A program made the position numbers and the translations under genes. Shown here piece by piece: positions 23,345 through 60,900 of a stretch of 64,000 nucleotides of DNA. How positions within the stretch are numbered: the stretch's first letter is position 1; every line of letters starts with the position of its first letter. The DNA is taken from positions 38,148,186 to 38,212,185 of the forward strand of contig OX381709.1 in the NCBI GenBank assembly GCA_947462335.1, read 5' to 3'. The notes beneath the pieces were generated by a model. It did not search any database and was not told the DNA's origin. It worked only from the letters and a program-made list of their open reading frames with translations. This stretch comes from Harmothoe impar. Lineage: Eukaryota > Annelida > Polychaeta > Phyllodocida > Polynoidae.

Positions 23345-24110
23345 GGAGTGCTGGAGGATGCTACCAGGGAGGAGGACGCCCAGAGGCCGGGGAGAGGACT
23401 GAGGAAGGCTGGACAATGTTAAAACGGAAGGAGAACGCCCAGAGGCCGGGGAGGTGACTGGGGAAGTGCTGGACAATGCTACAATGGGAGGAGGATGCCC
23501 AGGGGCAGAGGAGAAGACTGGGAAAGGGCTGGACAATTCTACAACGGAAGGAGGACGCCCAGGGGCAGAGGAGAAGACTGGGGAAGTGCTGGACAATTCT
23601 ACAACGGAAGGAGAACGTCCAGAGGCCGGGGAGAGGACTGGGGAAGTGCTGGACAATGCTACAATGGGAGGAGGATGCCCAGGGGCAGGGGAGAAGACTG
23701 GGGAAGGGCTGCACAATTCTACAACGGAAGGAGAACGTCCAGAGGCCGGTGAGGACTGGGGAAGTGCTGGACAATGCTACAATGGGAGGAGGATGCCCAG
23801 GGGTAGGGGAGAAGACTAGGGAAGTGCTGGACAATTCTACAACGGGAGGAGAACGTCCAGAGGCCGGGGAGGACTGGGGAAGTGCTGGACAATGCTACAA
23901 TGGGAGGAGGATGCCCAGGGGCAGGGGAGAAGACTGGGGAAGTGCTGGACAATTGTACAACGGAAGGAGAATGTCCAGAGGCCGGGGAGAGGAGAGAGGA
24001 AGTGCTGGACAATGCTACAAGTGAAGGAGAACGCCAAGAGGCCAGGGGGACGACTAGAGAGGTGGTGGACAGTGCTACAATGGAAGGAGGACGCCTAGAG
24101 ATCTGCGAAG
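23345..24110. repeat. 60-bp minisatellite with alternating unit types, 13 copies
   Basis: Units start with GCTGGACAA at 23408, 23468, 23528, 23588, 23648, 23708, 23766, 23826, 23884, 23944 and 24004, with diverged ones at 23350 and 24064. Most spacings are 60 bp and three are 58. Two unit types alternate (GCTACAATGGGAGGAGGATG versus TCTACAACGGAAGGAGAACG), giving a 118-120-bp higher-order unit. Long ORFs on both strands arise because 60 is divisible by 3. The 58-bp units break every frame, so I do not regard it as coding. Confidence 0.85.
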
Positions 24111-27575: not shown

Positions 27576-28049
27576 TTGATGAGCTTCAGAGGCTTGCTGC
27601 GAGTGTGCCATTCGACAGGTTCCAGTCACAATATTATAGCACGAGATGTGACTGATCAATTCGGTAGCAATCAACACTGTGTTTATCTTCAGGACCTCCC
27701 GGAGTCTCCCTGGTGTTTATCTCCCCTGCTGAAATATTGTTGGTGGGGGCAAAGGGGGATGAAGTTTTGGTCGCACATAGGCTGGGGGGTAGAGTTTTCC
27801 CTCAGTCATATGACTGTTAATGAAAAATTAAAACGGTGTTCTAGGGTTCTAGGGCTCCCCTCTTCTAGGGTCTCTACCCATTCTTTAAGGCACGGGGGTA
27901 CAACTATGTTGCAGGATTTAGGCCTACCGGTAGCTTCCATTTTGAGGAAAGGGAATTGGCGATCGTCAGTGGTTAAGAGATATCTTCACCAGTCAGCCTC
28001 TGAGTTAGCTGTACTGGAGGAATTGCCCTGTGGCTACATGGGGGGTTAG
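27576..28049 (+). pseudogene. Tyrosine recombinase (YR) C-terminal domain of the DIRS-like element
   Basis: Tyrosine recombinases cut and rejoin DNA through a catalytic tyrosine, and in DIRS-like elements they replace the integrase. The 157-codon frame contains THSLRHGGTTML (the H-x-x-R box), then LGLPVASILRKGNW and VVKRYLH, which supplies the catalytic-position tyrosine. Upstream residues (LPESPWCLSPL, MTVNEKLKRCSRVLGLPSSR) also fit DIRS/Ngaro YRs. The N-terminal catalytic arginine region is not in frame. Family assignment is from motif pattern. Crypton is an alternative, but the RNase H remnant just upstream favours DIRS. Confidence 0.7.
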
Positions 28050-43577: not shown

Positions 43578-43778
43578 TCATCCATCCGCCTTTAATGATC
43601 GGCTTTAATGAATACCCTGGGGGTATGGACATGTTTTGATGATGTTTATCTCTTACTCGATTGCATGATGTATCTGCCTTGCATCAACTGGACATGCTGA
43701 AAGGCATTAGTAAACGCTGTTGATTGCCCAACACTTGCGTAACAATCAATCAATCAACATAATATTATGTCGGTGGCA
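43578..43778. repeat. Dispersed repeat R4, left part of the copy split by the LINE
   Basis: Matches 34432-34600. The copy resumes at 49384 on the other side of the LINE. Confidence 0.55.
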
Positions 43779-44260
43779 ATACTTTTTTTCTTTTTTTGAT
43801 TTGAGATGGCGAAGAGTTGCCAATCCCGTTTATTATTTATACTGGACATAAAAAAGAGCTTGTTCAGCTCGATGAGTATTTTACATCCAGTTTTCACATG
43901 TAGTCGCTGTATCATAATACTATAATGAATATGTGAACAAGGAAAATAACAACAATGGATATGCCTGGTGATATTATACCATCCCCCAGGCTATCGTTAT
44001 GCTTTGTCAGGTTACTACTTAATAAACTAAATTTAGATATATAATCAAGTACAGATGACACGTCTATATTTCTATACCTCAGCAATATATATAATTACAT
44101 TGAAAATAATGTGATGGGATGAGACATTTAGGGGCGGGCACCCCATACATCTTGATAAGTCTATGCTTTATAAAGTGATTATTTACCGGTAATACTACAT
44201 GTAATTAAACTCATATGTAGCAAGAAAAGACACAATATACATAGCTATCCGATGCAGTCT

Positions 44261-47137
44261 TCATGTTAAGTTATAATTTGTACTGCCAAGCCATTTTTTT
44301 CTATTTAGCTTGAAGGCCTCATAGTCTAATATGTTTCTTATGTTAACAGTAAGGTTGTTCCAGGCCACTGCCCCCCTATACAGAGCGCTTTTTTTACAAG
44401 ATTCATTTTTTGGCTTGATGCATAGAAATAGAGGTGCGTCATGAGCACGGGTGAATACATTCCTAATATTTCTTATGTCCATATTATTTTTTTGCTTAAA
44501 CATAAAATTCACAAGGTGCATTACACGTCTAGGTTGTAGCTTTGAGATGCGCGCCTGTTGATGAGTTAATATAACCGGATATCTATAATCCAACCCTTAA
44601 CTCATACGCAATGCTCTATTCTCTACGACCTGAATTTTATCTAAGGTGGCCTTTCTTGCAACTCCATAAAAAATATCTCCATAGTCAGCATGTGGCAGCA
44701 CCATGGTCTTATACATATATAACATTGTGTCATTACTCATACAATCCCTTAGAACAGCCATTTGGTGTACCCGATAGACTACTTTTTTATATGCAGATTC
44801 AGCTTGCATATTAAAATTTAAAACAGGGTCCAAAATTACTCCCAGATATTTAAAGCTGATGCACCTGTCAATTTCTTTATCTCCAAACCAGACCCTATGA
44901 GCTATTATCTCTTTCAACCTCGATCTAAGACCAAAAATCATGTAATTTGTTTTTTTTGCATTTAAAGTCAGCTTATTTTTCCTAAACCATAGAGACAAAC
45001 GTGTCAGGTCCTGTTCAAGAGAGACAGTTAACTCATTAAGGTTGTGCCCTGTCATTGACACCACCGTGTCATCTGCATACAAGTAAGTTTTGGAGTTAAA
45101 AATGACATTTCTCAAGTCGTTTATATAGACTAGAAAGAGGGTGGGGCCCAGAATGGACCCCTGAGGGACCCCACAGACTACATCCCCTTCATCAGAGGTG
45201 ATTCCATTAGCAAAAGTTTTTTGTTTTCTGTTTTTAAGATAATTAGCCAGCCATTTATAAAGAAGACCTCCGACACCTAATTTTGATAATTTTTCTAAAA
45301 GAATAGAGTGATTTACGGTGTCGAAAGCCTTCTTTAAATCCACAAATACAGATAGAGTATAGTGTCTATTGTTAATGCCCCTATATATGTCGTCAGTAAA
45401 ATAGGCAACAGTAGAAATGGTAGAGTGATCCGCCCTAAAGCCACCTTGCTGAGTGTCCAATAGGTCGTTATCTTCAAGGTAACCTATTAATCTATTATTA
45501 ACTATTTTTTCTAATAGTTTACCTACAATAGGCAGTAATGTTACAGGCCTTAGGTTTGCCACGTCAGCCTTATTGCCTTCTTTCTGTAGGGGGATCACAG
45601 TACCAATCTTCCACTTATCGGGTATAACAGAGCTGGTGAATGTTTCATTAAATAAAACTGTCACCCTATCTGGAATAGCTAACATACAATCCTTAAGTGC
45701 TCTAGAGGATATGCCGTCAATGGCCGACGACTTATTCACCTCAATCTCTTTTATATATTTCAGGACCTCTGCCTCGTCCGTGCGTATGTCTCCTATACCC
45801 TCCTCCCTTAATAAACCATCATATGACCATTCATCGTCATAGGTTGAGGCCAGCTTGGGTCCTATGTTCAAAAAATAATTATTTATAAAATTTGGAGTGT
45901 CGTCTGGCAAAATATCTATATCATTTTCCTGGTCTCTTAAGTTAAAGTTGGAATGTTCGCGTTTACCTTTAATAATTGTATTAAGTATTTTCCAGAATTT
46001 CTTACTATCTTTTTGGTTCTCTTCTAGGCTATCTCTTATAAATTTGGCTTTAGCTTTTTTGATAATTTTATGTACATTATTGCGTAATTTACTTGCATTT
46101 TGCCAGTCGACAGGACTCTTAGAAACCTTTGCCCTTCTTAGCGCTAGATCCTTATCTCTAATTATCTCCAGGATATAATCAGTTATCCAGGGTGCTCTAT
46201 CTTTCCTCACCTTGAATGTTTTCTGAGGACACATATCATCTAGACATCTAGAAAGAAGACCAAGTATAAATTCCCATCTATTATTAACATTATTACAATC
46301 ATCCCACGGCCCCCAGTCCGCATTTTTTATACAAGCCTTAAATAATTCACTATCATATTTACGGTAAGTTCTGCCTGTAAAAGAGACCTTTTCATATGTG
46401 ACATAATTACCTAACAGAGTAATACCTATTAATAGATGGTCACTTATATTCCAATCTCTTGTGAAGGTCAAGTAGCTTTTAGCGGTATTTGTTATAACCC
46501 AATCCAAACAAGTGCTCGTATCCTCGGTAGATCTAGTAGGAACATCAATTAATTGTTTAAGGCCTAAAATATTTATGCATACCTTCATTAGTTTTGTTGA
46601 TACCTTGTTCACATTTAAAAAGTCGAAATTAAAATCCCCCATAATTATTAAGTCTTTTCTACGTAAATTGCATCTTTCAATCTGAGAGTTGAATGCCTCT
46701 ATAAATAGCGCCTTATTACCGTCAGGTGGTCTGTATACGTTTGCTACTACAATATTTTTTTTCCCATTTCTAACAATTTCTACCCAATGAATTTCTATAT
46801 CATTACTACTAACATTCAGGTGAGCATAGTTACTAGTTGAATACGATACATCATTTCTTATAAATAATCCAACTCCTCCTCCAGTCTTATCGTCACCCCA
46901 ACCCCTATTAAGACCTTCAAATGTGTAACCATCAATATGATACCTATGGCTAGCAGTTTCTTCATCTAGCCATGTCTCCGAAATGCCAAGGACTGCATCT
47001 AACTTATCCCACATATGTATACGTAATGTCTCTATTTTTGATACTAAACTTCTAGTGTTAATGTGGGATAAAGTGAATTCGTTCTTGCTATTTCTTTTTA
47101 TATTATTACCTGGCAGGATACCGTAAGGGTTTGCCCG
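44261..47137 (-). CDS. LINE ORF2: endonuclease and reverse transcriptase, one premature stop
   Basis: ORF2 nicks target DNA and copies the LINE RNA by target-primed reverse transcription. Numbering from the first ATG (47014): the AP-like endonuclease holds LGISETWLDE (10), TGGGVGLFI (~45), VANVYRPP (~90), IMGDFNFD (~126) and SDHLLI (~190). The RT holds FVDLKKAFDTVNH (~556), GVPQGSILGP (~617), YADD (~645) and FRKNKLTLNAKK (~680). The C-terminus has AWNNL (~885). A TAA at 44597-44599 interrupts the frame about 110 codons before the natural stop. The endonuclease's first strand (TLSHINTRSL) lies upstream of the first ATG, in a frame open to 47137 with no ATG, so the true start is unclear. Confidence 0.92.
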
Positions 47138-47785
47138 CTATGTCTCTTCCCATACATAGATTACATTTTATACAATAATAAAGCAGGTTATGACAACTAG
47201 TGTCCCCCACTGAGGGATTTCTCCCCATTGCTAGGCTTAGAGGCGCATTTAGTCAGCCAAATAAGATTAGAGAAAGCAATACCCCCCCCCCCTTTTAATT
47301 TTAATTGATAACCCTGTATAATATAATTTACCAGACTAACATGAAAATAAATTCATTATCAAAGATCTAAATTTTCAATAATCAACCACCCTACATGAGT
47401 AGTTCATTTGCACATACTTTTTATGTGAATCACACAGTTTAATAACATGTTATGGTATTACATACATTTGAAAATGACTCTAGCAGTGACCATGTGTTGT
47501 ATGAACCCATACTAATCTACCATACCGGTAGCGTCTAATATACAGACTGTGCGATCAGCTGATCGTCTTGAGGTGGCGCCATCTGGTGGTTCAAACTCAC
47601 ACTATGCTTTGAACTTCATGTCATACGGTATATAAAGGTACGCGCTATACATTATGTCCAAGTACAAATTATACATGTATGATAGCATATTCTTTACAGC
47701 GAAAGTAATGTAATACCGTGTGAGCAGTGATTATGCCCTAATGTAACCATTACACATAGCCTTTAAACCTCATACTGAATCACAT
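47138..47785 (-). other. Spacer between LINE ORF1 and ORF2, with a CTCF-like motif
   Basis: About 650 bp with no ORF and a poly-C run at 47281-47291. On the minus strand 47575-47589 reads CCACCAGATGGCGCC, which fits the vertebrate CTCF core consensus CCASYAGRKGGCRSY at all 15 positions, and CGATCAGCTGATCG is a 14-bp palindrome nearby. Binding is not established. Confidence 0.4.
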
Positions 47786-48259
47786 TCATGTTTTTAGTTC
47801 GTCTCTGAGTTCCATCAGCAGGTTTCCCATTTTGTTGCTTTTAACGCTTCTCGGTGTGATCTTGTCTACCTGTGAGATGGTGTATCCACAGCCCCAGCCT
47901 TTTTCTGTTGAAGCTTCGTATAGGGTACCGGTAGTCTCTAGCAGTTTGGCTGTGAGGTCTTCGTCTTGTGTGAATTTGAGTTTAATGCAGTCCGCCATAA
48001 TATCATACCTTTTGATGTGAGAGTCCTGCTTCGTGTAGGCTATCCTATATGATAGCTTTTTGGCCTCATAACCATCCTCGCTAAGCATTATAGCCTCTGC
48101 TGTGTCGAAGTCTTCATTATATACTGCCAGTCTGTACCAATATAATTGCTCTGACGAGAGCCAATTGGTGTTATCATACAATATAGTGCACCTATACATG
48201 TTGGACAGGAACGAATGATGAGATTGAAACGCTATGCCATGTTCAAAATGAACAGTTTT
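47786..48259 (-). other. NADAR domain within LINE ORF1
   Basis: Residues 322-478 of ORF1. The conserved S-E-x-x-Y/W box (LSSEQLYWYR), the K-x-T-Q/K-F-x-Q-D block (IKLKFTQDEDL), the E-A-S then WG-x-G (GWGCG) and the final N-x-MGNLLMELR match the family from start to end at the usual length of about 155 residues. Confidence 0.85.
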
Positions 48260-49222
48260 GGCAGCCTCCAGATCCACTCCTTCGGGTAGTTTGTGTATGT
48301 CTCTATACTGAAACACCTCCTGATCCACCTCTATCTTGTTCCCCTTCACTCTAGCAGCCATACCAAGGTCTCTGGCCACTGCACTTAGGCATCTCAGCTC
48401 CTTGCGCTCCTGTTGTTGTTCAAGCGACAAGTCGTCACTAATGAAGATCTTTTTCCATTTGTCTAGATCTCTCATTTTACCTATATTGGTAAATAGCTTC
48501 TGTTTTGAATCCATGTCCCTGAATTTAATTAATATATTTCTCGGGCTCGTAGCGTTGTTTCTCAGCTTACCAATCCTGTATGCACTTTCTAGATTTATTT
48601 TATCACCTGGAGTGCATGCCCCAATATCATTCATCAGATCCAATAGGATTTTTCGTGGGGTATCTTGTCCTTCTGGGAACGCCTCTATTATAATGTTTTT
48701 GCGTTTACGGTCTTCGTCTAAGGCTCTGACCCTCATTTTTTCCTTGTCCAGCCTGTGAGATAGTCTCTGATTAGAAATGTCCAGGGTTTTACACTCGTAA
48801 TTCCTCTCATCTAACAGCTTCTCTGCTCTTTCCATTCTAGAGGTGAGAGCCTCAATACAGGTCTCGGTGTCAGATTTAAACTGGTCGTATGTGGATATAT
48901 GTGAGACTAGTTTATTGTCATTAGACTTAATAGATGCTTCGAGCCCCTCAAACTTTGCTATCATGTCCTTATTGGACTTTTTGAGCTCTAACATGGATTC
49001 CAATAGCTGATCGTTAACCGACTTCTCACCCGCCATTGTTGTTGTGTCGCTGTCAGACCCTACAGGCCTGCTTTCAATAGGAGTCACAGTGCAGCTCGCC
49101 TTGACAGGTGTGTTGTTTACCTGCCGATCCTCACCTGACGCTGTTGACACCGTCCCGCGTCCGCTACCACTTCTACCTCGTCTCACCTGAGTATTAGCTT
49201 TCTTCAAAGTTGGTCCTGGCAT
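47786..49222 (-). CDS. LINE ORF1 with coiled coil, RNA-binding region and C-terminal NADAR domain
   Basis: ORF1 proteins bind LINE RNA as chaperones. The 478-residue product starts at ATG 49222 (MPGPTLKK); an earlier GTG is not needed. A basic N-terminus with GRSGSGRG (~18-25) is followed by a heptad-rich coiled coil (~75-175), then an L1-ORF1-like RRM region (KNIIIEAFPEGQ, SAYRIGKLRN, PRNILIKF, ~177-240) and a Q/E-rich segment (~265-310). Residues 322-478 are a NADAR (YbiA/DUF1768) domain: FLSNMYRCTILYD, WLSSEQLYWYRLA, TAEAIM, EAKKLSYRI, IMADCIKLKFTQD, LLETTGTLYEAS, GWGCGYT, KMGNLLMELRDEL. NADAR enzymes act on ADP-ribose-linked substrates; its role here is unknown. The frame has no disruption. 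Confidence 0.88.
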   Translation of the reverse strand: MPGPTLKKANTQVRRGRSGSGRGTVSTASGEDRQVNNTPVKASCTVTPIESRPVGSDSDTTTMAGEKSVNDQLLESMLELKKSNKDMIAKFEGLEASIKSNDNKLVSHISTYDQFKSDTETCIEALTSRMERAEKLLDERNYECKTLDISNQRLSHRLDKEKMRVRALDEDRKRKNIIIEAFPEGQDTPRKILLDLMNDIGACTPGDKINLESAYRIGKLRNNATSPRNILIKFRDMDSKQKLFTNIGKMRDLDKWKKIFISDDLSLEQQQERKELRCLSAVARDLGMAARVKGNKIEVDQEVFQYRDIHKLPEGVDLEAAKTVHFEHGIAFQSHHSFLSNMYRCTILYDNTNWLSSEQLYWYRLAVYNEDFDTAEAIMLSEDGYEAKKLSYRIAYTKQDSHIKRYDIMADCIKLKFTQDEDLTAKLLETTGTLYEASTEKGWGCGYTISQVDKITPRSVKSNKMGNLLMELRDELKT

Positions 49223-49383
49223 ATCGAATGTAATGGCTATTATACATTCCACGCATGCCTCAGACGTTTATGAAGATATGCTTTCAATTTCTGGTCATCT
49301 CGCTGCTCAAATACCCGTAGAGGTGGTGGTTCGCTCTCCCCGCACTTCTAGCTAACCTGTGCTTGCCGCCATTCTTTTTCTAT

Positions 49384-49660
49384 TCAACTCTGAATTGTGT
49401 TAAAGCTAACAAAAGAGTTTTACTTAATGTTGACTATTGGTATTAATGAGTGTGTGTACATGGGCGTGAGAATAGATGAACACGTTAACGGTTGAATGGT
49501 TGGACATGTTGGGATAAGGAGAAGCACAGTGAGAGAAGTCAAAGATGGAAGGAGCAATGGTATCAGAGGAGAAAGGCATGGGGTGACTTGCTGGCTGGCT
49601 GGTAAAATAGGGGGATAAGAAGAGGGAAGAATGGAGGGAAGGAGAGTGAAAAGCAGGGAA
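49384..49660. repeat. Dispersed repeat R4, right part of the split copy, with purine-rich tail
   Basis: AATTGTGTTAAAGCTAAC and TGAGTGTGTG match 34623-34680. A G+A-rich tract follows (49500-49660), as in the other copy. Confidence 0.55.
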
Positions 49661-56775: not shown

Positions 56776-59700
56776 ACCCCAACCTCCAAACCCATCCTTC
56801 CCTTACAACATTCCCTGCCTAGCCACTTCCTTTATCATTTTTTCCCCTCTCTTCATTCCTTCCTTCCTCTCCCCACCTGTACCCACTATTACCAATATAG
56901 TCAAAATCGAAGACGTCTGACACCAGAAACCACCTGTTTTTTCTCTGCGACCTCAAAAAGCTGGGTGGCGATGAGTTTTATTTAGATTATGTAGTTATTT
57001 ACATTATCAACATTGTTTCTGAAAACAAAAATGGCCAACATTATATACGGACGCCGACCACTTGGCCGTGTTAGTGAGTCCTCGTGATTCAATAATGGCT
57101 CAGACTTAGTTGCAAGCAGATATGTATAATAAAGCCCATTTGATATCATTTCAAAAAAAGGTAAGTAACTATCAGAATATAATATTATTGAGGATCGTGG
57201 GTGCATGTATACCACCTTCACATAATGGATATAAGACATCTGGTTGCATTCTCAGTGTATGTGGCTCCTTTTTTCCGTATCTTATCAAAGCCACTTGCAT
57301 TTTCAGTCCAAGTCTCCTAGTACACAATTGTCAGCCAGCAAGAACAGCTGTGGGTGTTTTCCTTGACAATGGGCCCATTCAATGTAGGTGTGGTGCACAG
57401 TAATTGGCGGCCGGACAGGACATAGCCGTCATGCCCGTTGTCCTGTTCTGACTGCTGCTGTGGGATAATTGTCGTCGCTGAGAAGTGAGAGCTCATTACT
57501 CACACAATGTACCAGCCACACCACTGGGGCACCGAACCACTGAGTGTGATACAAACAGTGGCTGGTGTACCACATAGATGGTAATTGACGTCCTGATTGA
57601 TGGTGTCAGATGGTATTTGATACACACTCAATAATGCGTAAATACTATTAATATAATGTATAACGCAGTGTCAGCAGAATATGGTGGGTGGGGTTACAGC
57701 TGCAAGTTGTGCTAGACCTTCTGCCACTTGGCCATGATGTGCAGCAACCTGGAACATGTCATGTCTCCACGCCATAAGAGAGGTTGTAAAACCAGAAGAG
57801 AGCCTGATTTAATGACAATCATTATGTATCATAACTTTTATAACCTACATTAAACTACTAAGTGCTATAACATGTAGGTTTGGCAGTTACACTGACCCAA
57901 CTATCCTTGTATTGTGAACAGTGCACCTGGCATTTCTCACTTTTTCTCATCTCAAGAGATTTAGCAAACCTGTTGAGACAGTGACTTGTACACAATTATG
58001 CACACATATATATAGTCGTTTGCCCTTTATACATTCCTGAAGCTTCTGCCCAAGTGTTATTATCTATCAATTTTCTTTCTATCAAGTTCTCATCTCTCTG
58101 CTTTGAATGCCTTTGGCTAAGGTCCACCACCTTCTGGCCCACGCCCACCTGGGTATATGGATTCACACCTCTGACCTGGGTCGAATCCTCCTGGGCATAT
58201 AGACTTACTTCTCTGAATACGCAAGATGTCGTAGAATGGAGTGCCCCTGCGCTTCCTGCTTACATGATTGTATACTATGTATTCCCCCGAAAATAATATC
58301 ACCTGTTATATTCTTCGTCTGCAGAGACTTGTATTGCTATAGTATGGAGATGTTAATTACATATTCTGTTCGTTCAATGGCTGTAATATCCCAGGGGAAA
58401 GGTTACCCTCCCAACACGTCAGCGCTATTTCAACTAGGGAAGTAGTATATAGAAATATGTGTTTTGAGCGGGTAGCATGTTGATGCAAATAAAAGATGGA
58501 TATGAGTTATACATTCGCAGATGCCATTCCGAAATTAAGAATTTGTAGACGACAAGAGGTCTGCTTTCACAGAAATGCACACCATTTGTAAGTAGATGTG
58601 TAGATACGGATTTATCGGTTGGTTGGATGTACGTTGTATGGGTTGCACGGAACGTGTTCTTCTAATAGATAATGTAATTGATTATTGGAATGTAGTCAGC
58701 GGGTTGTCTCTCAGCCTTAGCAAACATTACCATACCTGTGGTGTCATTGGATGTGATTGGATGTAATTGCCTTACGTTCACATTGCTGCCAGGGCTTCAT
58801 GTTTGACCACCTGACAGAAATGCACAATGTAGTCCTATATCATACCCGCACCCAGCTCACACCCAGCCACTTTGTATACATTACTCGGCATCCCCTCACC
58901 AGGGTCTACCCCGGAAACTTAACCCTTTAAGGACAGGTCATGCCTCAAGTTTTATGTTCTTCACTTCTCGTCATGATGCACCGACGCAACCCCTCTGAAT
59001 AACCCCACTCCGTCGACTCCTCATGAGTATCGACCCGTAGGATCGGCATGATGTATGAATACAGCCCCGGTGAGTTACCTGCCAGGGCTGCATCCATGCA
59101 TCGTGACAACACAGGGGCATAGCTATTAAAAGGCTAGTAGTAGAACGTCCCAGCTACTGAGCACGTCAGCTTCAGTCCTGATTGGAGGCATTAGTCAGGC
59201 TGGATTACAGCGTATTGCGACAGGAGAGCGAGGAGCGCGATACAGGTTGTTAGGCTAACTTAGATCAATGTCGGATCAATACTTGAATCAATATTTGGGT
59301 AACGAGATGAGTGTTGATTGCACAATAACACGCCTAAAGACATCGGGTAATGACCAATCAAGGCGTCTAGTCTGGGATTGAGTAGTATATAAGTAGATTC
59401 TGCAACGTAATACTTTCCGTGAATTGGTTAATTAATTATGTAACTTTTGTTGATAAATTTCCGATCTTTGGAGGTGTAGTATATGAAACATCAGTGTAAA
59501 CTCTTTGCGTAACTAATTTACAGAAGTGGATTTGGTTAGGGTATGCCTAACATTTAATTCATGAATGTGTTAGAACTTAGATAAACCCTCATCCGCCTTC
59601 GTCAGATGTATATTACTTTGTAAAAGAGACCTATCTGTAAAGGAATTGGCTGAAACAAACAAAAAGTAATCACACTTAAGACAATAACTATGTGTACTTA
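56776..59700. other. About 2.9 kb without a recognised exon, probably intron 1 of the receptor
   Basis: Lies downstream of the splice donor of the minus-strand receptor exon. I searched both strands for transmembrane segments 5-7 of a GnRH-type receptor (for example an NPVIY-like motif) and found none. ORFs at 57110-57403 and 58054-58296 have no domain. Confidence 0.4.
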
Positions 59701-59702
59701 CC
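59697..59702 (-). promoter_or_regulatory. Splice donor of the receptor exon
   Basis: Minus strand CAG|GTAAGTAC, which matches the consensus donor at every core position. The intron break after SLPQ in TM4 keeps codon phase 0. Confidence 0.85.
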
Positions 59703-60298
59703 TGGGGTAGACTGGCTACTCCACTGAAGAGCCAAGCTAGTATCAGCATGATCTTGCCTCTTCTTTCTGCATCACTCATGCTGAGGGGATGGAGGATGGC
59801 GAAGTACCTGTCAAGACTGATAACCACCAGTATGAAGGAAGACAGGTAGAGGCCAAAGGCACGAAAGAACATAAGGAGGCGACAGGCAATGTCTCCAGCC
59901 CTCCAGGAAACGGTCATGTGCCAGATGGTTTCTAGAGGCAGCATGATGAAGGTGACGATCAGGTCGGCCAGTGACAGGTGCATGATGAAGAGGTTGACGC
60001 GCGACTTGCGGTGACGGTTGCGAAAGAGCGTCAAGAACACGGTGAGGTTGCCAACAGCGGCAGCAACAAAGAGGAGGCAATAAACGACAACAGACATAAG
60101 GTTGTCCTCATCAAAGGTCATATCAGGGGGGAGGATGGTGGTGTCTGAACCCTCCTCCAGGGTGGAAGTTGCACATTCCACAAAAGGTAAGCTCCCCAGA
60201 CCTGTCACCCCTCCTCCACCACCGTTACCTGTTGGCCAAGGTGAGGGGCTGGAACTTAGATTGAGGCCGTCGTCACACGGGTAGACCATGTTTGACAT
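59702..60298 (-). CDS. First coding exon of a GnRH/AKH/corazonin-type G-protein-coupled receptor
   Basis: Rhodopsin-class peptide receptor at the plasma membrane. The 199 codons run from ATG 60298 to CAG at 59702 and then GTAAGTAC, a strong phase-0 donor. The ATG at 60289 has a better Kozak context (A at -3, G at +4). The N-terminus has an NLSS glycosylation site (~13). TM1 ~68-92 (VGNL), TM2 ~104-126 (HLSLADLIVTF), ECL1 W (VSWRAGD), Cys139 at the start of TM3, TM3 ~139-165 ending ISLDRYFAI, and TM4 ~183-199. SRVNLFIMHLSLADLIVTF and CRLLMFFRAFGLYLSSFILV are characteristic of invertebrate GnRH/AKH/corazonin receptors. Which subtype is not resolvable from half the receptor. TM5-7 must lie in other exons, not found here. 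Confidence 0.88.
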
Positions 60299-60900
60299 AT
60301 CACCAAAAGAAAGCACTAGCTTAAAATCTTCACGTAGGTTTCTTGAGAATTCTGATTACAATGGAAATTCCTAACTACTTCTTTTCCTCGCAATAGAATG
60401 ATCCAGGAACATTTCTCTTAAAGCCACATTATTCCTTCCATCAGGTTATATACTCGTTCCTGTTAGTCCTCTTGTTCTTCAATTATGAATGTCACTTTAA
60501 TTAAATTCCCTCCGGGTGATGAATAAATGAAATAGCAGCTGGGGCTGACAGTGCAGCCCACTCCTTATTTGCTGTAGATCCAAAGTTAAACTGCGCACCT
60601 TGTTGGGCTGTAACCACTAGCAGACCCAGTCCTGCAGCCTAGTGCCTGCTGCTGGGCTCTCCCTCTGAGCTGCTCTCCTTCTACCACTACTTCTGGCTGT
60701 AGCCTCGTGAGCAACTCACCTCCGTCCCTGCCACCAAGTGCTACCGTCACAGTGGCGCCATCTGGCCTTGCGCCGTGGGAATTGTGGGTTGGAGACAATG
60801 TGCAGTGCAGTCCTCGAGAGCGTGGCCGTTACTGCATGCATGCCTCAGAACTGTGCCTCTGCACTAATCTGATTGGTGGTGAGATTTTCGTTTCTTTTCA
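60299..60900 (-). promoter_or_regulatory. 5' flank or 5' UTR of the receptor gene
   Basis: An in-frame TAA lies upstream of the ATG. The region 60560-60850 is GC-richer than its surroundings. It holds CAGCTG-like E boxes, a minus-strand CCAAT box near 60872 and a CCAGATGGCGCC motif (60754-60765), also found in the LINE spacer. A promoter is inferred and the transcription start is unknown. Confidence 0.35.

What the first reader, a model, noticed from the sequence alone, without database searches (positions are those of the whole stretch)
47786..49222. LINE ORF1 fused to a NADAR (ADP-ribose-processing) domain
Seen: an undisrupted 478-codon frame with a coiled coil and an L1-type RNA-binding region, ending in a full NADAR domain (LSSEQLYWYR, IKLKFTQDE, GWGCG, KMGNLLMELR). 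Known: NADAR-family enzymes act on ADP-ribose-linked substrates, including reversal of guanine ADP-ribosylation of DNA, and partner some DarT systems in bacteria. Inference: the element may carry an enzyme that strips ADP-ribose from its RNA, cDNA or target DNA, a possible counter to host PARP-type defence, or that uses NAD-derived molecules. I cannot tell from memory whether such LINE-NADAR fusions have been described.
Basis: partly seen in the sequence, partly recalled or inferred. Interest (0 to 1): 0.92.

Follow-up and report, generated by a model that had tools for sequence, protein, structure and literature searches.

The report
Jumping gene carrying an ADP-ribose domain
An animal jumping gene (a LINE) makes an RNA-coating protein that ends in an ADP-ribose-processing-type domain; the fusion is kept by selection in many related elements of the same genome, but in this element's own branch the ligand pocket has been rebuilt, so what it now binds or cuts is an open and testable question.

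Summary
ORF1 (47786-49222) is an intact 478-codon frame: coiled coil, L1-type RNA-binding region (profile hit to human L1 ORF1p, E 2.1e-8) and NADAR (Pfam 7.3e-20). It belongs to a ~5.6-kb LINE (43787-49381) with an EN-RT ORF2. It is no one-copy accident: 74 of 89 scored genomic matches are open frames that include NADAR, and NADAR shows dN/dS about 0.045 in 13 copies, like the RNA-binding part. Seven further families, picked by their NADAR hits, also have NADAR in an ORF1-like frame followed by EN and/or RT. The essential Lys and a conserved Trp are absent in 36 of 36 clade rows, present in 24 and 25 of 25 other rows; both ribose-contacting Glu remain except in one copy. Guanine-ADP-ribose hydrolysis is doubtful here, plausible in sister families. 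The fusion is in print in one sentence (oyster Tx1 LINEs, PMC12477816). Hence a new variant of a known kind.

The parts
43787..49381 (-). Whole LINE element, about 5.6 kb, with an A-rich 3' end
   Evidence: The 5' boundary of homology falls at window 49379-49383 in 14 copies (L002-L012, L016, L018, L019); L013 runs to 49403; the other loci compared are truncated or too diverged to tell. Flanks differ between copies. 3' boundary at 43787 against L031 and 43791 against L032. No target-site duplication recognised by eye in the two copies looked at.
47786..49222 (-). ORF1, 478 codons, coiled coil - L1-type RRM/CTD - NADAR
   Evidence: Open frame; Pfam; profile vs PDB
48728..49012 (-). Coiled-coil region, residues about 71-165
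   Evidence: Weak coiled-coil hits; dN/dS 0.030; limits set by eye
48260..48727 (-). L1-type RRM + C-terminal domain, residues about 166-321
   Evidence: Profile hit to human L1 ORF1p 2ykp E 2.1e-8; dN/dS 0.042; limits set by eye
47792..48223 (-). NADAR domain, residues 334-477; ribose-contacting E358 and E436 kept; Lys position is L365, Trp position is S401
   Evidence: Pfam PF08719 7.3e-20; residue tables
47015..47785 (-). Inter-ORF stretch, 771 bases, apparently non-coding
   Evidence: Divergence within about 15% of that of ORF1 codon position 3 in 7 of 12 comparisons
44597..47014 (-). ORF2: endonuclease + reverse transcriptase, 805 codons up to an in-frame stop; the frame goes on to 44261
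   Evidence: PF00078 9.4e-33, PF03372 7.7e-9; the 111 codons after the stop match all six longer relatives, L031-L036

Best explanation
A copy of a LINE whose ORF1 protein carries a resident C-terminal NADAR module. Shown: the fusion, its linkage to EN-RT, its spread in many copies and families, purifying selection, and the changed pocket. Inferred: like L1 ORF1p (trimer and RNA chaperone, recalled), the protein coats the element's RNA and thereby concentrates the NADAR pocket on the RNA, its cDNA or the proteins bound to it. There the pocket recognises, and perhaps cleaves, a ribosyl N-glycoside derived from NAD/ADP-ribose, removing a host-made mark or a blocked RNA end. In sister families the pocket is complete at the key positions and ordinary ADP-ribose hydrolysis is plausible. 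In this clade the ribose-contacting side is kept while the phosphate-contacting side is changed and new residues are fixed (Trp362, Ser391, Thr397, Lys398, Lys441, Cys445), so the likeliest state is a working pocket of altered specificity, not a dead relic.
For: First ribose-contacting Glu and the W133 equivalent kept in 36 of 36 clade rows, second Glu in 35 of 36. Newly fixed residues: Ser at G78 and Lys at 131 in 36 of 36, Lys at 86 in 35 of 36 (Lys at 86 also occurs in 6 of 25 other rows, Lys at 131 in 1). NADAR dN/dS 0.045 (95% 0.024-0.075) over 13 copies, as low as the RNA-binding part. Against L014, synonymous change saturated with NADAR pN 0.064, below RRM 0.085 and coil 0.134. Codon positions 1 and 2 are roughly three-fold or more below position 3 in 11 of 12 comparisons (not L002, which has too few changes). 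74 of 89 scored matches are open and reach the NADAR end. Seven more families with NADAR frames followed by EN and/or RT. NADAR protein SNA-3 of nematodes acts in RNA metabolism, and mutation of key residues in its second and third NADAR impairs or abolishes function (PMC9303266, abstract and passages). NADAR fused to Pfam domains PF03291 and PF03919, recalled as mRNA-capping domains, in other proteins.
Against: The catalytically essential Lys and the Trp found in 25 of 25 other rows are lost; D130, Asp in 23 of 25 others, aligns with Glu next to a one-residue deletion. No structure or ligand test: whether Lys398/Lys441 face the pocket is unknown. One open full-length copy (L008) has Lys at the second Glu. 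The dN/dS sample was taken among the best-scoring open copies, which lowers the ratio. In the small sister family L041-L044 the few changes (at most 7 synonymous and 5 non-synonymous in NADAR per pair) are too few to test selection.
Confidence: 0.5

Rival explanations
1. The NADAR fold in this clade is a non-enzymatic module: it binds RNA, a partner protein or other ORF1 proteins, and the old pocket has been given up.
For: Loss of the essential Lys and of the conserved Trp; NADAR domain 1 of nematode SNA-3 also lacks the key residues (PMC9303266 passages).
Against: The ribose-contacting Glu residues (36 and 35 of 36 rows) and the WG.G motif are kept, which a mere scaffold need not do.
Confidence: 0.33
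2. One reading: an enzyme that removes ADP-ribose from guanine of RNA or DNA, countering host PARP-type defence.
For: NADARs do this (PMC11543638, section 12 read); the sister LINE families L041-L051 keep Glu, Lys, Trp and Glu in every row tabulated. ZAP restricts human retrotransposition (title of PMC4441479, search listing only; that ZAP is a PARP-family protein is recalled).
Against: K95 of E. coli C7 NADAR is essential and its equivalent is never Lys or Arg in this clade (0 of 36). A basic residue stands one place earlier (E+6) in 9 of 15 representative rows, the window included, and might stand in; but none lies at E+1 to E+8 in L023, L024, L027, L029, P0003 and P0004.
Confidence: 0.14
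3. A decaying passenger domain, or a chance join in this copy.
For: None beyond the residue changes.
Against: Same join in 74 open frames of 89 scored; dN/dS 0.045; kept between families 43-52% identical in ORF1.
Confidence: 0.02

Closest known systems
ORF1 of several Tx1 LINE families of the oyster Crassostrea gigas (PMC12477816, passages only)
   Same: LINE ORF1 with a YbiA-family NADAR domain
   Different: Reported in one sentence as divergent Repbase hits; no copies, selection or pocket analysis in the passages seen. Whether the present RT is Tx1 could not be tested: it scores alike against L1 (55.8 bits) and R2 (51 bits) chains
NADAR-bearing Gypsy LTR elements of Ectocarpus (PMC12477816, passages)
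   Same: Retrotransposon with a conserved NADAR domain
P. nicotianae NADAR 8BAU and E. coli C7 DarT1-associated NADAR (PMC11543638, section 12 read)
   Same: Same domain; E43 and E125 equivalents kept
   Different: K50 and W89 equivalents lost in this clade; G78 is Ser and R79 is Tyr or His, though R79 is Arg in only 8 of 25 other rows too
Type II (L1-type) ORF1 of L1, CR1, L2 and R1 elements (PMC4120745, abstract and passages)
   Same: Coiled coil - RRM - CTD
   Different: That survey of 448 Jockey-superfamily elements has no 'NADAR' or 'DUF1768' in its main text
Type IV ORF1 with esterase domain (PMC4120745 passages; PMC3905857 search listing only)
   Same: An enzyme-type domain in ORF1
   Different: Unrelated domain

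Membership tests
NADAR domain family (PF08719) | Sequence match above the curated cut-off | tested here: met
   72.3 bits against 35.1
NADAR, YbiA subfamily | Glu at the E125 position (PMC11543638, section 12) | tested here: met
   E436 in the window; 35 of 36 clade rows
NADAR, riboflavin-intermediate N-glycosidase (TIGR02464) | NCBIfam equivalog model above cut-off | tested here: not met
   67.7 bits against 73.7
Guanine-ADP-ribose hydrolase | Lys equivalent to K50/K95 | tested here: not met
   0 of 36 clade rows, 24 of 25 others, the exception being P0014
Guanine-ADP-ribose hydrolase | De-ADP-ribosylation in vitro | not testable with these tools
   Needs protein
APE-type LINE | EN and RT in ORF2 downstream of ORF1 | tested here: met
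   Window. A match to window ORF2 lies downstream within the 1.5-kb flank in 26 of 30 loci L001-L030 (in L008 over 40 residues only; not L011, L019, L020; L022's match lies upstream), and in all 6 longer stretches L031-L036
APE-type LINE | Multicopy, defined ends, target-site duplication | tested here: inconclusive
   Copies and ends yes; no duplication recognised by eye
Type II (L1-type) ORF1 | Coiled coil, RRM, CTD | tested here: met
   L1 ORF1p profile hit E 2.1e-8; the coiled coil rests on weak hits only
Tx1 clade | RT groups with Tx1/L1 | tested here: inconclusive
   No Tx1 reference at hand; L1 55.8 and R2 51 bits

The most novel reading that the evidence does not exclude
NADAR is a standard, repeatedly kept ORF1 module of a whole set of animal LINEs that edits the chemistry of the element's own RNA, for instance taking NAD/ADP-ribose-type caps or marks off its 5' end or cDNA, and one clade has evolved a second, new specificity by rebuilding the phosphate side of the pocket while keeping the ribose side. 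That would be a class of retrotransposon that processes NAD-derived nucleic-acid marks, with two enzyme types living in one genome.
Probability: 0.25. Interest if true: 0.88.

Novelty: new variant of a known kind. Interest (0 to 1): 0.62.

Why it matters
It ties LINE mobility to NAD/ADP-ribose chemistry. It offers a natural comparison, complete and rebuilt pockets in ORF1 proteins of one genome, that makes the question 'what does NADAR do for RNA in eukaryotes' directly testable. NADAR is described as rarely found in animal proteins (PMC9303266 passages), yet here 150 scored places pass the Pfam cut-off, and of the 15 that I opened 11 are ORF1-like frames.

Tried and rejected
Close viral relatives: a scan of viral contigs with the window NADAR found 10 pattern matches and no relative; this reaches close relatives only, so a viral origin is not excluded. 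Host gene as donor: the four standalone NADAR frames L037-L040 group with bacterial NADARs (with Paenibacillus at 85/79) and not with LINE NADARs, so I do not take them as the donor. Single origin of all LINE NADARs: not rejected (p-AU 0.121) but not shown. Rfam: nothing at gathering threshold in 43700-49500. Host phylum by molluscan haemocyanin PF14830: 0 hits, but the control rang nowhere, so uninformative. A mitochondrial marker search (PF00115) did not complete. Structure prediction was never accepted, so no fold comparison was made. Naming the RT clade from solved structures failed for want of references. Alignment shift as the reason for the missing Lys: rejected for the six representative rows without a basic residue at E+1 to E+8, not for the nine with one at E+6.

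Full report
What is there. The interval holds, on the minus strand, an ORF of 478 codons from 49222 to 47786. Pfam gives NADAR at residues 334-477, 72.3 bits, cut-off 35.1; the solved NADAR 8BAU matches at 1.2e-13. A profile of 12 sequences (the window and 11 relatives) hits 8BAU at 1e-18, human L1 ORF1p at 2.1e-8 and YbiA 2b3w at 1.5e-5; the single sequence reached only 0.23 for L1 ORF1p. So the L1-type RNA-binding part is real but needs a profile to be seen.

The element. Downstream on the same strand is ORF2, with RVT_1 9.4e-33 and an endonuclease domain 7.7e-9. Its 805-codon frame ends at an in-frame stop (44597-44599), after which the same frame continues for 111 codons that match all six longer relatives fetched. 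The 5' boundary of homology lies at 49379-49383 in 14 copies and at 49403 in L013, with different flanks; the 3' end is near 43787 in an A-rich tail. I saw no target-site duplication by eye.

Copies. The genome search scored 89 of 3473 first-look candidates. By my count 74 of 89 have an open frame of at least 420 aa without stops and a match that reaches the NADAR end: 13 at 94-100% identity, 1 at 80%, 44 at 49-52% and 16 at 43-46%. A match to window ORF2 follows within the fetched flank in 26 of 30 loci L001-L030, in L008 over 40 residues only, and in all 6 longer stretches.

Selection. Over 13 open copies (78 pairs) dN/dS is 0.045 for NADAR (bootstrap over codons, 95% 0.024-0.075), 0.042 for RRM+CTD, 0.030 for the coil and 0.188 for the N-terminus. 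Third-position divergence is within about 15% of the inter-ORF stretch in 7 of 12 comparisons (L006-L010, L012, L013); the inter-ORF is lower for L003-L005, higher for L011, and L002 has almost no changes. Positions 1 and 2 are roughly three-fold or more below position 3 in 11 of 12, not in L002. The copies were the best-scoring open ones, so the ratio is biased low. L014, 80% identical, gives synonymous change beyond correction with NADAR pN 0.064. The sister family L041-L044 has too few changes to test.

The pocket. Numbering follows 8BAU as in PMC11543638 (section 12 read): E43 and E125 contact the distal ribose; K50, R79, W89, R93, W133 and, through water, D130 the pyrophosphates. Over all 61 rows of at least 110 residues (36 of this clade, near-identical copies included, and 25 others): K50 0 of 36 against 24 of 25; W89 0 of 36 against 25 of 25; E43 36 of 36 against 25 of 25; E125 35 of 36 (L008 has Lys) against 25 of 25; D130 is Glu in 35 of 36 against Asp in 23 of 25; W133 36 of 36 against 22 of 25. 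R79 is Tyr or His in the clade but Arg in only 8 of 25 others, so its loss says little. Fixed in the clade: Ser at G78 and Lys at 131 (36 of 36), Lys at 86 (35 of 36); Lys at 86 also occurs in 6 of 25 others and Lys at 131 in 1. On a thinner set of 15 and 14 rows the same holds. The one other row without K50 is P0014, the sister of the clade, which has Cys but keeps the Trp. Among 16 later proteins 14 have Lys and P0017 and P0021 have Arg there. SNA-3 work names Glu, Asp and Trp homologues of residues critical for YbiA (passages); their match to my columns is my inference from spacing.

Not one family. PF08719 in the genome scored 150 of 3484 candidates, all 150 above cut-off. I opened 15 of these loci (L037-L051). 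Four are standalone NADAR frames of 183-268 aa. Eleven are ORF1-like frames of 217 to 1331 aa, of seven families by eye. Pfam was run on one of each family and gave NADAR in all seven, and each of the seven is followed by an endonuclease and/or RT match to the window ORF2. These loci were picked by their NADAR hits, so they do not tell what share of the LINE families has the domain. The RT of L098 is the most distant (25.8% over 430 aa). All tabulated rows of these families keep Glu, Lys, Trp and Glu.

Origin. A tree of 47 NADARs puts this clade with P0014 on a starred branch (100/98). Deeper links of LINE NADARs are unresolved, and many end branches are long. One origin for all LINE NADARs is not rejected, p-AU 0.121. 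The standalone frames lie among bacterial NADARs.

Mechanism. Shown: fusion, linkage, spread, constraint, residue changes. Inferred: ORF1p brings the pocket to the element's RNA. NADAR fused to PF03291/PF03919 (recalled as mRNA-capping domains) and SNA-3's link to the CBC-ARS2 complex (abstract and passages) make RNA ends a sensible place to look.

Prior art. PMC12477816 (passages) reports NADAR in Ectocarpus Gypsy elements and, in one sentence, in ORF1 of several oyster Tx1 LINEs, and suggests RNA processing. My searches were NADAR/retrotransposon (20 of 104 listed), NADAR domain (15 of 15), Tx1/non-LTR/NADAR (10 of 36), YbiA/transposable element (2 of 2), DUF1768/retrotransposon (10 of 15,538 holding either term, none listed with DUF1768) and NADAR/ORF1/LINE (9 of 9). 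The listings showed me no other paper on LINE-NADAR; the library is open-access only. PMC9503650 (passages) covers viral NADARs and has no 'retrotransposon' in its main text; PMC11125620 was seen as abstract and outline.

Limits. Structure prediction was never accepted (last try). The host was not identified; a 7tm_1 receptor frame in the window fits an animal. The RT clade is not named.

Noticed in passing
window 44597-44599, minus: In-frame stop in ORF2 of this copy; the same frame goes on for 111 codons that match six relatives.
   Followed up: partly
window 47015-47100, minus: By eye the endonuclease frame seems to read in upstream of the first ATG of ORF2, so ORF2 may start without an ATG.
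   Followed up: no
L037-L040: Standalone NADAR frames uninterrupted over the domain that group with bacterial NADARs; L037 is 60% identical to a Paenibacillus protein and 57% to a Bacteroidetes one. Possible gene transfer from bacteria.
   Followed up: partly
L046:4503-5381:+, L047:1004-1798:-, C-terminal part of L049:1539-3812:-: Frames beside or fused to NADAR look SGNH/esterase-like by eye; Pfam gives no such hit.
   Followed up: partly
P0019, P0022, P0023, P0025, P0028-P0032: NADAR together with PF03291, and in P0030 and P0032 also PF03919; recalled as mRNA-capping domains, perhaps giant-virus proteins. Relevant to a role at RNA 5' ends.
   Followed up: no
window 49360-49381, minus: Element 5' end begins AGAAAAAGAATGGCGGC; ATGGCGGC recalls a YY1 site as in human L1 (recalled, no call).
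   Followed up: no
L031:2503-2878: ORF2 of the copy nearest to the window is split by about 375 extra bases.
   Followed up: no
L008: An open full-length ORF1 copy with Lys in place of the second ribose-contacting Glu.
   Followed up: no
window 27576-28049, plus: Weak Phage_integrase match (E 0.001, 19.3 bits, below the cut-off of 27.1), perhaps a remnant of a tyrosine-recombinase element.
   Followed up: no
window 59570-60316, minus: Frame of a rhodopsin-family receptor, 7tm_1 1.1e-27.
   Followed up: no
window 23347-24100: Minisatellite of 12.7 copies of a 60-base unit that yields long frames on both strands.
   Followed up: yes
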